NCBI GenBank assembly: GCA_020809705.1
Contig: CP085830.1
Span: 2,728,001 to 2,792,000, forward strand
Direction: 5' to 3'
Source: Calonectria ilicicola
Lineage: Eukaryota > Ascomycota > Sordariomycetes > Hypocreales > Nectriaceae
DNA: 64,000 nt
The notes under the pieces: model-generated
Database searches by the model: none
What the model was told of the DNA's origin: nothing
The model's input: only the letters and a program-made list of their open reading frames with translations
Part shown: positions 24,313 through 30,994 of the stretch, in pieces
How the letters are laid out: every line of letters starts with the position of its first letter
Numbering within the stretch: position 1 is the first letter of the stretch
Translations under genes and position numbers: made by a program

Positions 24313-25357
24313 TTAGTCCAGTCCCTCTGGCGCAGGAGCATCCAGGCGTTGGGCTGGCCTGCGCTGCTGCTGCTGCGGCGCACCCGCGGGAGCGCCTCCA
24401 CCAAACAGGCCGCTCATCATATCCATCAGAGGGTTGCTCTTGCGGGGCTGGGTAATTCCAAAGTACATCTCGCCAATCATCTGGAGCGCATCACCCCATG
24501 TCTCGGCCTCGTTTATTTGCGTGGCATACTTTGACACCAGACCCTTAAACAATTCGGGGGCCGAACGTTGGACAGCCATGAGGAGGAAGCCGAGGAAGTT
24601 GAGGAGAGGGAGGCTGGGGAAGATGCGGATGTCACCGCTGGAGCTCGATACGTCCTGGACACCCAGGTTGGGGTTCTCGGAGCTCAGTGTACTGGTAAAA
24701 AGACGGTAGCAAGTGTTGGCTGCGCGTACGTTGCCAACCAATAGATAGGGTATGACAGCTCGGCCAGCAAAGAGTCCAGCCTCGTGGGGCTCGCCCTCCT
24801 TGTACCACTTGTATTCCATCTTGGTCAAGACCTCGGGAGAGTCCTTTGTTCCCAATACCAAGTGTCTCTCTGCTTCGTATGTCTCGTGCTCTTCGGCGTA
24901 AAGCGATCCGGCAACGTGGTGAAGCTCTGGGTCGCCGGCAGGGTATTCGCCGAACTTGGCAGACCATCTATCAAGTTGTTAACATGTGACTTGTAAGTCC
25001 CCAAACCACGGCTTCTCACCCCATCATATCTCCAACAAACTTCTTGCGCGTGGGCTCCTCGGAGTCAAACAGGCGCAGGCAAGTAAGTAGTCTGCCCTTG
25101 TTGGTAGCATCAGGCTTCAGCTCGGCCTGATTGTAGACGTCAACAAGCATGATACACAAGTCGCCGCCGCTGCCGCCCTGGCCGGCTCGGAGTAGAGACT
25201 GGGAAACATTGGCGAGGATGTCTATCGCAGAAGGCCAGTTGGACGTCTTGATGTAGCGGGCGGCGACGACACGGGTCTGCTGCTGCGCTTCATAGTAATC
25301 ACCGTCGGTGATCTTGGTCTGTAACCGGGCGACGATGCGGTCGACCTTGTTGGCCAT
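24313..25357 (-). CDS. GET4: Get4, cytosolic factor of tail-anchored protein insertion
   Basis: Exons 25357-25020 and 24967-24313 give 330 aa; the intron is 52 bp with an in-frame join through a split Gly codon. Get4 with Get5 bridges the Sgt2 chaperone to the ATPase Get3, handing tail-anchored proteins to the ER pathway. The sequence shows the alpha-solenoid expected: KVDRIVARLQTKITDGDYYEAQQQTRVVAARY at the start, DILANVSQSLLRAGQGGSGGDLCIMLVDVY, then after the intron WSAKFGEYPAGDPELHHVAG and RIFPSLPLLNFLGFLLMAVQR, which lie in the Get5-binding C-terminal half. A Met/Gly/Gln-rich tail ends the protein. The frame extends upstream of 25357 but has no ATG, so 25357 is the likely start. Confidence 0.92.
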
Positions 25358-25647: not shown

Positions 25648-25718
25648 GCGCGAATGGTTTAGTGGTAAAATGCGGGCTTCCCATGCCTGTGCCCCGGGTT
25701 CGATTCCCGGTTCGCGCA
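25648..25718 (+). tRNA. tRNA-Gly (anticodon CCC)
   Basis: A 71-nt intronless cloverleaf. The acceptor stem GCGCGAA (25648-25654) pairs with TTCGCGC (25711-25717), with discriminator A at 25718. D-arm: TGGTTTAGTGGTA. The anticodon stem CGGGC/GCCTG, including one G-T pair, encloses loop TTCCCAT with anticodon CCC. The T-arm CCGGGTTCGATTCCCGG is perfect. Alignment position by position with the standard eukaryotic tRNA-Gly gives the same length and no gaps, which fixes the anticodon. The internal A and B boxes are intact. Confidence 0.97.
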
Positions 25719-25723
25719 CTTAC

Positions 25724-25728: not shown

Positions 25729-26574
25729 GCCCTTTCTGCGTGTTATTTTTTGAGAGTGCCTTCTCCTCATTCCCTCCGTCTCGCCATATAGTTCTCTATG
25801 ACTCAATTGGTTTTAGAGTATTCCGATTTACGTTCAGTTAAAAACAAGTGGCGGGCTTGGCCAGGGTTTCTGTCAGAAGCTTTAGAGCCAAGGTAGTATA
25901 TATACAAACTACACTCAATACCTTTACTAGGTCACAATTTGACGACCCAAAAAAAAAACAATCAATTCAGTCCTCTTTCCAGTAGAATTTTAATGCCCTC
26001 ATAAAAAATTAGATAATTATACCTGAATAAGATGGCTTCCCTAGCTAAGACCGGTATGCCCCAAGTCATATCCCATCCTTTACCGCAATAATAACCTTTG
26101 AGCACCTCTTATCACTGATGATGTGGCCAGCTATTTTCCGGGATGGTCTATCTAACCTAATGATCCTAGCTCCCGCCAATGAATTATTTGCTATGCCGAA
26201 CTTAAATCCTTGCACCCGATTTGTTAAAGTCATAATGGCTTGTTTTTGCCAGGTAGCTCAGACGATTTATTTTGGAATTTTGCCAAAGAAGAAAAAACAA
26301 AGTTAGAGTTCATGATTTTGGGCGAGGTGCAGCACAATTGTATGGTGTATAGGGGCTGAAGATTCGTTGACTAAGATAATTAGACATATTCAAGTCAGGA
26401 GCTTCTAGTCACATGCCGTTTTGCCAAGGCCAGGTCAAGAGACCTGAGCTCTTTCGGGCTCAACGTAATCAGGATGAATCAAACAAGTAGCTCATTGACA
26501 GTAAACTTGTGCTTGTTATAAGATGGCAAACATTTGCCACTAGGACGTATTCGTCAAATACAGGAAATGTTTTT
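25729..26574. other. AT-rich intergenic region
   Basis: About 850 bp of AT-rich sequence with no supported gene, leading into the decayed gene on the minus strand. Confidence 0.4.
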
Positions 26575-27190
26575 GAGGACCGTACCTGGCTTCGACCCAA
26601 TACTTCGCAATGTCGCCAGCAATCCGGTTGACCTCGGATAGCGCATTGCGAATGAACCGGACTTTGTTGGGTAGGCTGTCAAGATAATCACGAAGCAGCT
26701 TGGCAATGTTCCAAAACCCCTGGCCAAACATTGCTTAGCAACATTAGTAGGCAATAGTCACATGCAACAGTCAATCAAACACACCTTCTCAACCCTCGCC
26801 CATTGGGTTCGAATATGCTTCTCTTTTTCATCTTGAGAAATCGCCTGAACACCCCACCCTTAATTGGTGACGTTATTGATGGCCTTTGAGTGGGCTAGTT
26901 CTACCGTACTCAGATTGTCGATGTCCCCTCAGTCAGAGTGTTCGTCATCTGAGCGTGCGTAGCACAATTCATCCTGCACGGGTACTCCAATGGGTTGCTG
27001 AATGCAAACTGGGTGCGCCCGATGGCCATACTATTGATACAACTCGATAAGCATACAACCCACAAAAATAGCAAACAGTAATCACATACTAATACACCTC
27101 AGTCTCGCTTCGCGACTTCTCGACGAGGGCTTCCTGCTCTTGAGGCGATTTCAACATTAGTGTGAGCTGGTTAGGAATCCTACTGAGTTC
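26575..27190 (-). pseudogene. Decayed multi-exon gene of unknown family
   Basis: Read on the minus strand, coding-like blocks are separated by plausible introns. The first block ends SPQEQEALVEKSRSETE at a GTGTATTAG donor. A second, after an ATAG acceptor, reads ...AHSKAINNVTN, stop, GWGVQAISQDEKEKHI, then RTQWARVEK to a GTGTGT donor. A third, after TACTAATGTTGCTAAG, reads FGQGFWNIAKLLRDYLDSLP, NKVRFIRNALSEVNR and IAGDIAKYWVEA, and ends at GTACGG. The middle block contains TGA and TAA in frame. The splice-like signals, helix-like composition and broken frame argue for a pseudogene rather than chance ORFs. The family is not recognised. It lies directly upstream of, and divergent from, the H3-like gene. 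Confidence 0.4.
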
Positions 27191-27672
27191 TTGCCCCGCG
27201 AGAGGTGGCTTTTTTTTAGGAGAAAACGAAATTAAAACCGGATGCGACGGTATGAGATAGCGAAGAGGGAATACCAAGGAATCGTTACAATTTACCGTGG
27301 TCAAGTGAATGATGCAGGAAATTTGCAAACAGGGTAAAGCTTGAAACTTGCCGTAAATCAAAAGTGAGAAGAGGCTCGCTAATTCTTAGGGTTGGATCGG
27401 TATGGGAACCTTAGGCCTTAGCCCAGTGATGTATACAAACGCAGACATGAATGTTTGTCTCTCCTCTTCTCTTCACATTTCAACACCTACACACCCCGGT
27501 TCACTGTTCTTTCATTTATCTGTAGCGAAGTATCATTCTATTCTGCTTTATTTTATTCACTTACTCCTTCGGTTGATTCCAGTTTCTTTACCATTTTCCA
27601 CAACGCGGATTCTCCAGTGCAAGATCCTAGACCCGTTACGTACTATGTGCTCGCTAACCGTGACTATTTAGC
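27191..27672. promoter_or_regulatory. Upstream region of the H3-like gene
   Basis: About 480 bp, T/C-rich near its right end (27460-27620), directly preceding the ATG at 27673. It presumably contains the promoter; no histone-type motif can be assigned. Confidence 0.35.
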
Positions 27673-28331
27673 ATGCCTCGCAAGAAGCTAGCAAGGAAGA
27701 TAGTGCTTGGCTTTAAACGATCGAAAAAACGTGTGATGAGAAGGAAGAAGACGGTGCTCCAGGAGCCGATTCCACCCGGGAAAGTGTTTCGATACAAACG
27801 CAGCAGTGCGTACTTTGTCCTTGCTCTGGTCTATTTGTCTTAACCCTTTTCTAGCTGCCTTGATCAGACAATTTCGACGCTCTCAGAAAAGAGACGACCT
27901 CTTGCTCCCGAAGTCACCATTTGCAAAAGTTTTCAAGGACGCCTCTGAACAATACAAGCCAGGTCTTCGTTGGCAGCGAGACGCCCTTGACGCCCTCCAA
28001 GATGCAGCCGAGTTACATCCCACCACTGTTTTTTCCGGTATGCTCAATCACACACATGCCACTTCCTTGTACTAATGACTATATAGCTGCACAGCTGCAA
28101 GCAATCCGTCTGAGAACAACTGCGATTCATGTCGAAAACATGCAACTCGCCGCAGCTATTCTCAAAAAGCTTTGCCCCCAGATCACTGGTGGGGTAGGTG
28201 AATTCTACAACGAGAAAAGCTCTGCTCAGCCTGCCTGCGACAAGTATGCCAACATTGGAGGAGATGATGACGAGAGTGGGGGAAATGGTGATGCTAGTGG
28301 CCGTACTGGTCTCAATGCCGAGCAGAATTGA
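27673..28331 (+). CDS. Divergent histone H3-fold protein (H3/CenH3-like variant) with C-terminal extension
   Basis: Exons 27673-27805, 27855-28037 and 28087-28331 give 186 aa. Both introns are 49 bp with intact donors (GTGCGT, GTATGC) and branch points (CTTAAC, TACTAAT). Residues 1-44 form a very basic tail (PRKKLARKIVLGFKRSKKR) with none of the canonical H3 tail motifs. Residues ~39-134 align almost without gaps to the H3 fold: RYKRSTALIRQFRRSQK against RYRPGTVALREIRRYQK; LLLPKSPFAKVFKDASEQYK against the alpha-1 region; GLRWQRDALDALQDAAE against DLRFQSSAIGALQEASE; LQAIRLRTTAIHVENMQLA against LCAIHAKRVTIMPKDIQLA. By hand about a third of core positions are identical to H3. Trp in LRWQ recalls fungal CenH3. 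Oddities: HPTT inside alpha-2, loss of the FEDTN motif, and a 50-residue acidic/Gly-rich C-terminal extension (GGDDDESGG) that H3 lacks. Nucleosome incorporation is inferred, not shown. Confidence 0.8.
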
Positions 28332-28963
28332 TTGAAAATTCGGGTAGGTGGCCAACCACAGCCTTTCCATAGCTGATTAGGACATCGAATTAGTTATATC
28401 CAATTAGTACGTCCAGTCATTTCAATCATTAATTGCTAGATATATATGGTGACCAGGTGTTTTTCCTTCCATCAACTTGAGTAAATGTACTAGTCAGAAT
28501 TAAACCCTAATTGTTTCTACAAATCTCACTTGGCTCGCGTTGAGCCCGAAACGCCCGTTTTACAACATCTACTTCACAAGGATCCGACTTTTCTTTCATT
28601 TAAAACCATTACGATTTGACATTGGTTACTAACGATAAACCAACAGAGAGGGTATTTCTTTTCGTGCATGCATGCAAAATAGCAACTACAAACACCAGAC
28701 CGACCGTCCTACCTCATTTTCAACCGTCTTGTATACATTGCGAATCCTTTTCCTCGTTTCCTCATCTTTAAAATTGCCTGATACGGCCACACATGTCCCA
28801 TACACCGCGGTACTCCTGCGCGATACAACATTTGCTCCCAGCGGTCCGATTTGAACCAATCAAGAGGCTTAGCGAGGCTCTCCCAGTCATTACTTGAATC
28901 CCGCGTCGATTATATAGCCGACTGATGGCTAGAGCCAACGCGTTCATGGTGATTAAAACCCAA
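28332..28963. other. Convergent intergenic region
   Basis: 632 bp, AT-rich, between the 3' ends of the H3-like and F-box genes. No further feature seen. Confidence 0.4.
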
Positions 28964-30994
28964 TTACCTCCACAGATCTTTGTTGGCTCTTGTTGAATCT
29001 CCTCCACTGCTGTACGGCCGGCCCGAGTCTGACATGGCGCTTCCATAGCTGTGGCCACCAAATCCACCACCAAATCCACCTCCAAAACCGCCTCCAAAAC
29101 CGCTAGGAGCAGGTTCCTGCCCTGGGAGGGCCAAGAAGCCACCAGTTCCATTACCCACCATGATGCTTCGGCGAGCATCACCCCTATCCCATCCAGATCC
29201 TGCCACATCGAGTTCCAGCCCATAGCTGCTAATCGGTCGACGACCGCCCGGAGCGGCCGCCGTCATTGTATCAACACGGGCAAAGTTCCATTTTCCAAAC
29301 TCGTCACTCTTCGTGAAGACCTCCAGTGTGTGAGTCGGAGGTGGCGAATTGGGTCCTCGAGCGGCATATGGATTGTTAGAGCTGAGACGATGCGATGCTG
29401 GTATGTTCGAGACGGGCCTTCGGGGTTGAGCAAGGGGGGAGGAAAAGCTGTGCGCGGCAGCGGGCGAGAGACTAAACCCTGGGCTTGACTTGACAGATGA
29501 ATGAGAGCTGGATCGCATGTGTCCTCCGGCGAAGGCGGCATTGGGTGGTGGTAATCCTGAAAGTTGATCAGGGAAGGTGTCGTCATGAACATACAAGCGA
29601 CGCAGGCGGGGGAAACCACCAGTCATGATAGATGTAGCTAGGTAGGTGTAATATCCCGTTGTGATGGAGGAGAAGGCTCCGGCAGTTGCAACACTTGAGA
29701 TCTCAAATCGAAGCGTTTCCAGCGAGCGAGATGACATTGGGCGGATAGAAGAAGAGTGAGGAAACTGTTCAATGACCTTTGTTTGGATAGCAAGCGTCTT
29801 GAGTGACGAGGCCATAGTGAGAACCTCTTGTAAGCTAGAGGGATGAACGCCAGTGTCGTGGAGCGTTAGCACTCTGAGGGCCTGCTGCGTTTCCTGCCAT
29901 GCAAGATATTCTATAAGCCCGCGGACCGTCACACGCGGCGTATCTTTGAGAACAAGCTCCTTGAGCGGAGGGAGTGTGGCAAGCCCATCGGCAGATGACA
30001 AGACCTCATCTGAGAAAGTAGGGATATCCGACACCTTCAAGGCCTGGAGCTTGGGCAGGGTACCCAAAACAGCGCGAATAGTGATAGGATCAATATTAAG
30101 GTTATTAATCTCTAAAACTTCCAGTTCATTCCAAATTCGGCCAGTCGCCAATGCGGCGAAGCTGCGCTCGGATCCTTGGTTGTACGTCATCTTGCGGATA
30201 TTGGGACAGCGAGCCTGAACCTCAAGACGCAGGGTCGCAAAGTTGGGGTCGTCGCAAAACATGCCCTCAGGCAAGTCAATATACTGGAGGTTGGGCAGCA
30301 CGGCCAACGTCTGAGCTAGCTCAACTGGGCACGACTCGCGCAGCATATAAGGCATTTTGAGGAACTGGACCAGCTTGCCCAGTCGAGTTGGGTCGTCGCG
30401 GACAGTGCGCCTGAATAGCCGCAAGCGGGCTTGGGCAGGATCCTCGGGCACTCCATTGCGGTCAAACCGTGACGTCTTTTTACGCTTCTCGGCTAACCAC
30501 GCCTCACGAGGGCAGTAATGGACGGGGTCGATGCGAACACTGTGATATCTAGAAGTGGGGAGGAAATTGTCAGCGATCAACGCGTCCCAGAACATGGTTA
30601 CAGTTATGGGTATGGGGGCACGGGCTGTGGGGGACGATTGACGAGCAACTTACAAGGTTCTGATTGCGACGGCTCGCCAAGCTCGGCAAACGCTGGTGCA
30701 ACGGGACAGATCGCGCAGGTCGCAGAGCATGCAGAGAGACTCGCTGGAGGCGGCGCTGCCCTCACACGAGTCGTAGGTCTCATCGCGGGAGTGGGGGCAG
30801 ACAAAGGAAAAGATGCGATCGAGAACGGATTGTGGCAGAACCTGGACGAGCTGTGCGGATCGGAAGGTTGGAGGGAAGAGCAGCGGGGCTGGCGCGAAAT
30901 CATCTGGGAATGAGAAGTCAGAGCCGCTGCTCTGGGAGTTGTGCTTCTTCTCCTTGTTCTTGTCCTTGCTGCGGCGGCGAAAGGAGAAGCGCAT
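28964..30994 (-). CDS. F-box protein with leucine-rich-repeat-like region
   Basis: Exons 30994-30654 and 30548-28964 give 641 aa. The ATG at 30994 is the first in frame. The N-terminus is basic (MRFSFRRRSKDKNKEKK). An F-box follows at ~residues 48-115 (VLPQSVLDRIFSFVCPHS ... LRDLSRCTSVCRAWRAVAI), interrupted by a Cys/Ser-rich insertion (CEGSAASSESLCMLCD). The central part has LRR-like units (LPNLQYIDLPEG, LEVLEINNLNI, LQALKVSDIPTF, LKELVLKDTPRV, LRVLTLHDTGV). A C-terminal low-complexity tail includes GGGFGGGFGGGFGG, encoded at about 29053-29108. F-box proteins recruit substrates to SCF ubiquitin ligases; the substrate is unknown. The intron sits right after the F-box. Confidence 0.87.

What the first reader, a model, noticed from the sequence alone, without database searches (positions are those of the whole stretch)
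27673..28331. Intact gene for a highly divergent histone H3-fold protein
The three spliced exons give a protein whose residues ~39-134 follow H3 with one small gap (RYKRST-ALIRQFRRSQK, GLRWQRDALDALQDAAE, LQAIRLRT, NMQLA). Roughly a third of core residues are identical by hand alignment. H3 is among the most conserved eukaryotic proteins, and CenH3 is normally the only fast-evolving form. Both 49-bp introns keep perfect splice signals and the frame is clean, although the neighbour at 26.6-27.2 kb is wrecked. That suggests the gene is maintained. It could be an accessory CenH3-like paralogue, a stage-specific variant or an H3-fold non-histone.
Basis: partly seen in the sequence, partly recalled or inferred. 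Interest (0 to 1): 0.88.

Follow-up and report, generated by a model that had tools for sequence, protein, structure and literature searches.

The report
Divergent fungal histone H3 variant gene
A fungal chromosome carries a complete gene for a very unusual relative of histone H3, one of three scattered copies that share the same introns; it may be a new kind of chromatin protein, but it could also be a gene on its way out.

Summary
Window 27673-28331 (+) encodes a 186-aa protein in three exons with two 49-bp GT-AG introns and an open frame. Residues 40-130 align gap-free with H3 at 31 of 91 identities (best of 10,000 shuffles 19), and Pfam Histone scores E=1.3e-13.

The three divergent genes share both introns at identical codon and phase (45/phase 1, 106/phase 1). 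The other three lack these and share an intron at 70/71. The two siblings have damaged frames; only this copy is fully open.

It is probably not CenH3 (no loop-1 insertion; two clear CenH3 exist). It does not look like hAT-borne H3 cargo (single-copy locus). Six of seven residues of a published H3:H3' contact network are replaced. No homologue passed in two protein-database searches, which need shared five-residue words.

Best reading: a lineage-specific H3 variant still able to fold and pair with H4, specialised or relaxed for tetramer and nucleosome formation. Incipient pseudogene is the main rival. No expression data.

The parts
27673..27805 (+). exon 1: basic N-terminal tail (residues 1-39: 15 K/R, 1 acidic) and start of the H3 core
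27806..27854 (+). intron 1, 49 bp, GTGCGT...TCTAG, phase 1 in codon 45 (H3 numbering); of the five other H3-type genes only the two divergent paralogues share it
27855..28037 (+). exon 2: region of alphaN, alpha1, loop 1 and most of alpha2
   Evidence: fold of residues 46-105 gives helices 47-56, 68-78, 85-98 at low confidence, mean pLDDT 65.5
28038..28086 (+). intron 2, 49 bp, GTATGC...TATAG, phase 1 in codon 106; of the five other H3-type genes only the two divergent paralogues share it
28087..28331 (+). exon 3: end of alpha2, loop 2, alpha3, C-terminal extension, stop
27790..28160 (+). H3-like core, residues 40-130 (both introns lie inside), gap-free with H3, 31 of 91 identical
28019..28021 (+). 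codon for Pro100 in the middle of alpha2 (Leu100 in H3, Leu or Met in six CenH3)
28098..28148 (+). residues 110-126: H3:H3' contact network; C110Q, H113R, A114L, R116T, K122E, D123N, L126 kept
   Evidence: residue roles from PMC3017104 and PMC6795475 (passages)
28161..28328 (+). residues 131-186, about 51 residues past the end of H3; residues 134-186 are Gly-rich and acidic (9 D/E against 3 K/R)
27654..27671 (+). possible 5'UTR intron end: CTAAC branch-like motif and TAG one base before the ATG; the C5 paralogue has the same TATTTAGCATG start context
   Evidence: read from sequence; inference

Best explanation
This is a protein-coding gene for a lineage-specific, fast-diverging histone H3 variant, one of a dispersed family of three in this fungus. 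Shown: H3-core homology, an intact spliced frame, and family membership through two introns at the same codon and phase that canonical H3 and the two CenH3 genes lack. Inferred: the family began as an H3 copy without the canonical introns that gained its own before the three copies separated. The protein keeps most of the hydrophobic core and so still folds with H4 (or the H4E-type variant also in this genome), is nuclear through its basic tail, and binds DNA through retained R49, R52, R53, K56 and R83. Because the H3:H3' network is rewritten (with a possible new R113-E122 pair), Pro100 interrupts alpha2 and the tail carries an acidic extension, it most likely works as an H3-H4-like dimer or an alternative tetramer in limited chromatin sites or life stages rather than as a bulk nucleosomal H3.
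For: Pfam Histone 1.3e-13; PDB H3 4.9e-14; 31 of 91 identities, gap-free. Introns at 45/phase 1 and 106/phase 1 in 3 of 3 divergent genes and 0 of 3 others, which share 70/71 phase 0. All three divergent genes also have A106 and A or S at 107. Codon score 0.127 in the true frame; the other five frames -0.09 to -0.39. Identity concentrates at positions where H3 and at least 5 of 6 CenH3 agree: 21 of 46 against 10 of 45, Fisher p=0.016. Precedents: fungal H4E is nuclear, interacts with H3, and is thought to have arisen via cDNA plus new introns (PMC10878826, passages); an A. terreus H3 paralogue has two introns but its authors found no expression evidence (PMC5307856, passages).
Against: No transcript, protein or orthologue seen. 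Two of three family members have damaged frames (C6 copy: in-frame TGA in the likely first exon; C5 copy: coding-like sequence of the alpha3 region lies in another frame). Pro100 and loss of the H3:H3' network could equally be decay; at 34% identity about 4.6 of those 7 residues would differ anyway, so 6 of 7 is not an excess. 31 of 400 neutral runs of a 91-codon core stayed open without indels. The tree does not resolve the family as a clade: holding it together costs 4.4 log units, AU p=0.31. The same conservation test is not significant for the C6 copy, p=0.21. The fold of the exon-2 piece is low confidence, and its best PDB match, an H3 chain, is not significant, E=0.24.
Confidence: 0.5

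Rival explanations
1. Incipient pseudogene: a duplicate H3 family under relaxed constraint; this copy is merely the last one still open.
For: Both siblings have damaged frames. Pro100 in alpha2, and 6 of 7 interface residues changed. 31 of 400 neutral runs of the core stay open. No homologue found. An H3 duplication in Aspergillus oryzae and relatives is described as probably non-functional (PMC5307856, passages).
Against: A full 186-codon frame plus four intact splice ends, in-frame codon preference, and conservation biased to positions shared by H3 and CenH3 (p=0.016); no RIP-type dinucleotide bias (thresholds recalled).
Confidence: 0.28
2. Cargo of a transposon, like the hAT-borne H3L of Pyrenophora tritici-repentis.
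For: Fungal precedents exist (PMC3538342, passages; PMC6710886, abstract and passages). A perfect 14-bp inverted pair flanks the locus at 26452 and 28538.
Against: The 2.2-kb locus is single copy in 70 Mb. None of the 34 hAT dimerisation-domain matches found (a lower bound) is on this chromosome. No DNA match between the flanks of the three loci, and no protein match beyond the gene itself. No transposase family in the nine pieces and ORFs scanned from the window or in ten larger ORFs beside the paralogues. The inverted pair has no matching 8-bp flanks (read), and 4 such pairs occur in the window. The P. fijiensis copies lack introns; these have them. Limit: the P. fijiensis element itself showed only DUF659, not the dimerisation domain, and I did not search the genome for DUF659.
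Confidence: 0.07
3. Accessory centromeric H3 (CenH3-type) protein.
For: W84, as in 6 of 6 CenH3 compared; nearest row by tree path and highest identity is S. pombe Cnp1, 36%; AU test does not reject grouping with CenH3, p=0.268.
Against: No loop-1 insertion, whereas all six CenH3 compared have extra residues there; different introns from both CenH3 genes; two clear CenH3 genes present.
Confidence: 0.06
4. Non-histone H3-fold protein: a subunit of some DNA-binding or transcription complex, pairing with another histone-fold partner through the same handshake.
For: Loss of the H3:H3' network and the extension of about 51 residues suggest a life outside the octamer.
Against: Only the Pfam core-histone family reaches its cut-off, with no NF-Y, CENP-T or TAF-type family listed up to E=1; N-terminal tail of H3-like length and charge.
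Confidence: 0.09

Closest known systems
Aspergillus terreus H3 paralogue (PMC5307856, passages seen)
   Same: An extra H3-type gene in a Pezizomycotina genome with two introns and no known function.
   Different: Its sequence and intron positions were not available here, so no homology could be tested; it is described as a single paralogue, here there are three.
H3L of Pyrenophora tritici-repentis and hAT-borne H3 copies of Mycosphaerellaceae (PMC3538342, PMC6710886; passages seen)
   Same: Multiple divergent H3 copies in an ascomycete.
   Different: Those sit inside amplified elements (26 to hundreds of copies; RIP-inactivated in Mycosphaerellaceae, without introns in P. fijiensis); these are three intron-bearing loci without shared flanks or a detected hAT domain.
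H4E, the ascomycete H4 variant (PMC10878826, passages seen)
   Same: Core-histone variant whose introns differ from the canonical gene; suggested origin via cDNA and new introns.
   Different: H4 rather than H3; H4E occurs through most Pezizomycotina, this family is so far seen in one genome.
H3V-CTG of Candida (PMC6703697, passages seen)
   Same: Non-centromeric H3 variant in an ascomycete, a phylum in which H3 variants are said to be mostly absent.
   Different: H3V-CTG is confined to the CTG clade of yeasts; this protein is only 34% identical to its own H3 in the core.
CenH3 / CENP-A / Cse4 / Cnp1
   Same: H3-type core and W84.
   Different: No loop-1 insertion, different introns, separate CenH3 genes in the genome.

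Membership tests
Core histone H3 (Pfam PF00125, H3 type) | significant match to the core-histone profile with H3 as best relative | tested here: met
   PF00125 E=1.3e-13 over residues 37-130; the 60 PDB sequences shown, of 172 matched, bear H3-type names
Core histone H3 (Pfam PF00125, H3 type) | histone fold in a structure prediction | tested here: inconclusive
   Only the exon-2 piece (residues 46-105) was folded; helices at the alphaN, alpha1 and alpha2 places but mean pLDDT 65.5; top Foldseek hits come from nucleosome entries at E 0.24 or worse
Nucleosomal H3 forming (H3-H4)2 tetramers | H3:H3' contact network (C110, H113, A114, R116, K122, D123, L126) | tested here: not met
   6 of 7 replaced (roles); about 4.6 of 7 expected at this divergence
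CenH3 | longer loop 1 than H3 | tested here: not met
   gap-free with H3; the six CenH3 compared all have extra residues
CenH3 | Trp at position 84 (as a CenH3 mark: recalled) | tested here: met
   W84 in this protein and in 6 of 6 CenH3; F in own H3
CenH3 | gene structure shared with the genome's CenH3 genes | tested here: not met
   introns at 45 and 106 against 29 and 70/71
CenH3 | centromere localisation | not testable with these tools
   needs a tagged protein or ChIP
hAT-borne H3L | hAT transposase domain beside the gene | tested here: not met
   0 of 34 PF05699 matches on contig C6 (a lower bound); no transposase family among nine pieces and ORFs of the window. DUF659 not searched genome-wide
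hAT-borne H3L | multi-copy element with TIR and 8-bp target duplication | tested here: not met
   locus single copy; 14-bp inverted pair without matching flanks
Three-gene H3-variant family of this genome | introns at codon 45 phase 1 and codon 106 phase 1 | tested here: met
   3 of 3 divergent genes, 0 of 3 other H3-type genes
Three-gene H3-variant family of this genome | monophyly in a protein tree | tested here: inconclusive
   very long branches; AU p=0.31 for the held clade
Aspergillus terreus H3 paralogue | same intron positions and sequence relationship | not tested

The most novel reading that the evidence does not exclude
A previously undescribed ascomycete H3-variant family with its own gene structure, whose one intact member has rewritten the H3:H3' interface (H113R and K122E could form a new cross-pair, D123N and R116T remove the old one). 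It could therefore pair with H4 or H4E yet assemble only with itself or stay dimeric, giving an orthogonal, non-canonical chromatin particle.
Probability: 0.13. Interest if true: 0.8.

Novelty: new variant of a known kind. Interest (0 to 1): 0.52.

Why it matters
H3 is nearly invariant, and H3 variants are said to be absent in most ascomycetes (PMC6703697, passages). A fungus with three additional H3-type genes sharing private introns is a natural test of how far the H3 core can drift and still work, and of how histone variants arise by cDNA-type duplication and intron gain. The rewritten H3:H3' interface makes a specific biochemical prediction (dimer or alternative tetramer) that can be tested directly. 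If it proves a decaying copy, it still records H3 duplications unlike the known hAT-driven ones.

Tried and rejected
Search for homologues: the whole protein at E<=1e-3 gave 183 word-sharing candidates and none passed; residues 37-140 at E<=10 gave 103 candidates and none passed. This tool needs shared 5-residue words and did not return even canonical H3 for this query, so it excludes close relatives, not distant ones. That it holds eukaryotic, including fungal, H3 is seen from the C5 paralogue's search (7989 of 8000 scored candidates passed, 120 listed, identity 38-63% to the query; none recognised as an orthologue). Viral origin: 51 stretches of viral contigs matched a pattern from the three-protein alignment, none a relative by tblastn.

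Phylogeny: 11-row tree unresolved (1 of 8 inner branches starred), two rows with very long branches; neither the family clade (p=0.31) nor grouping with CenH3 (p=0.268) is rejected. I therefore rest kinship on introns.

Further family members: searches with this protein (E<=0.01), each paralogue and a consensus gave no fourth divergent gene; extra weak hits were C2:3425118 (E=0.56) and C2:5311504 (E=0.72), not pursued. Six-frame searching can lose very divergent exons, so three is a lower bound.

Transposon reading: see rivals. One side of the C5 paralogue (2.5 kb) holds one ~140-bp repeat about 2 kb away that has 47 further matches; a 2-kb stretch holding the C6 paralogue has one 74-bp match elsewhere. 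Inverted 14-bp pair rejected as a TIR: no matching flanks, and 4 such pairs in 64 kb.

Full report
Observation. The window lies in a eukaryotic, fungal-looking chromosome (G000:C6:2728001-2792000, 69.9 Mb in 12 contigs; short introns and Pezizomycotina-like H3 judged by eye). At 27673-28331 (+) three exons (27673-27805, 27855-28037, 28087-28331) and two 49-bp GT-AG introns give an open 186-codon frame. Pfam Histone matches residues 37-130 at E=1.3e-13 and H3 chains are the best PDB sequence matches (4.9e-14). Over H3 residues 40-130 the alignment is gap-free with 31 of 91 identities to the genome's own H3; the best of 10,000 shuffles reached 19. The N-terminal 39 residues are strongly basic (15 K/R, 1 acidic); the protein runs about 51 residues past the end of H3, and residues 134-186 are acidic and glycine-rich.

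Surroundings. A GET4-type ORF (24316-24978 -) and tRNA-Gly (25648-25719) lie on one side, and a large ORF with weak, sub-threshold LRR hits (28967-30649 -) on the other. The fragmentary stretch at 26.6-27.2 kb gave no family over cut-off in five pieces. The 2.2-kb locus occurs once in the genome. There is no RIP-like dinucleotide bias in the gene.

Relatives in the same genome. Searches with the Pfam family and with proteins show six H3-type genes: canonical H3 (C8), two CenH3 (C4 and C12) and three divergent genes (this one; C5:6212.3-6212.9 kb, -; C6:1290.8-1291.3 kb, +). Gene models from the DNA show that all three divergent genes have introns of 48-51 bp at exactly the same two places, codon 45 phase 1 and codon 106 phase 1. 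Canonical H3 has introns at 25 and 70/71; both CenH3, as modelled, at 29 and 70/71. Two shared positions in three genes, absent from the other three, is strong evidence of a common origin separate from H3 and CenH3, which the protein tree could not give because of very long branches. The three also have A106 and A or S at 107. This gene and the C5 gene share the start context TATTTAGCATG, which looks like an intron end one base before the ATG (read; inference). The C6 copy has a TGA in its likely first exon, and the alpha3 part of the C5 copy changes frame, so this gene is the only fully open one.

Is it kept by selection? Codon choice is best in the true frame (0.127; the other five frames -0.09 to -0.39; trained on ten window ORFs). 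Identity to H3 concentrates at positions where H3 and at least five of six CenH3 agree (21 of 46 against 10 of 45, p=0.016; C5 copy p=0.0037; C6 copy p=0.21). Neutral simulation from the genome's H3 to the same identity left a 91-codon core open in 31 of 400 runs, without indels. This favours constraint but does not prove it.

What it can and cannot do. Residues F67, L82, A88, L92, E97, F104, L109, I112, I119 and L126 and basic residues R49, R52, R53, K56, K64 and R83 are kept (their structural roles are partly recalled). Leu100 in the middle of alpha2 is proline; in the low-confidence fold of residues 46-105 the alpha2 helix ends at residue 98, but the piece itself ends at 105 and I had no control. 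Published work places C110, H113, A114, R116, K122, D123 and L126 in the H3:H3' contact network; H113A, L126A and A114Y are lethal in yeast, and H113-D123 and R116-D123 bridge the interface (PMC3017104 and PMC6795475, passages). Here six of these seven are changed (Q110, R113, L114, T116, E122, N123), whereas both damaged siblings keep H113 and R116. At 34% identity about 4.6 of 7 changes would be expected anyway, so the point is which residues changed, not an excess. The simplest reading is that pairing with H4 is retained while canonical tetramer formation is lost or rebuilt; R113 and E122 could form a new cross-pair (inference). The genome also has an H4 variant at C4:2058.9 kb resembling the ascomycete H4E, which is nuclear and binds H3 (PMC10878826, passages); this is a candidate partner, untested.

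Rivals. CenH3: W84 fits, but there is no loop-1 insertion and the gene structure differs. Transposon cargo as in Pyrenophora H3L (PMC3538342, passages) or Mycosphaerellaceae (PMC6710886, abstract and passages): no hAT dimerisation domain on this chromosome among 34 matches found (DUF659-only elements would be missed), single copy, no shared flanks, introns present. Pseudogene in the making: the strongest rival, given the damaged siblings and Pro100.

Known context. H3 variants are reported absent in most ascomycetes, with H3V-CTG in the Candida clade as an exception (PMC6703697, passages). A paper on aspergilli mentions an A. terreus H3 paralogue with two introns and no expression evidence, and a probably non-functional partial H3 duplication in A. 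oryzae and relatives (PMC5307856, passages). H4E was proposed to have arisen via cDNA and new introns, and the present family fits the same route. Two protein-database searches found no homologue of this protein, with the limit that they need shared five-residue words. I saw no description of this family in the listings of the paper searches.

Verdict. A real, intact, very divergent H3-type gene, member of a dispersed three-gene family with private introns; probably a functional lineage-specific H3 variant (0.5), possibly a decaying duplicate (0.28). New variant of a known kind.

Noticed in passing
L001 (G000:C12:837.5-838.0 kb) and L003 (G000:C4:5539.8-5540.4 kb): Two intact-looking CenH3 genes with the same introns (29 and 70/71, as modelled) but different N-terminal tails; one sits on the small 1.36-Mb contig C12. 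C12 is 1.9% of the genome but holds 7 of the 34 hAT-domain matches found, so it may be an accessory chromosome carrying its own CenH3.
   Followed up: partly
L004 (G000:C5:6212.3-6212.9 kb, -): Less divergent H3-type paralogue (47 of 77 identical to own H3 in the aligned core) with the same two introns and a long K/T/P-rich tail; its alpha3 region runs in another frame.
   Followed up: yes
L009 (G000:C6:1290.8-1291.3 kb, +): Third divergent H3-type copy with the same two introns; in-frame TGA in the likely first exon. UbiA, ankyrin and Gfo/Idh-type ORFs lie within 10 kb.
   Followed up: yes
L053 (G000:C4:2058.9 kb, +): Multi-exon H4 variant resembling the ascomycete H4E/hH4v.
   Followed up: partly
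window 26452-26465 and 28538-28551: Perfect 14-bp inverted pair 2.1 kb apart around the gene; the 14-mer occurs only 3 times in the genome. No matching flanks; probably chance.
   Followed up: yes
window 26543-27385, - strand: Fragmentary ORFs with no recognisable family beside the gene.
   Followed up: partly
L039:2322-2464 (G000:C5:6214.8 kb): About 140-bp repeat with 47 further matches listed, at least nine of them within 20 kb of a contig end: a possible subtelomere-associated repeat.
   Followed up: no
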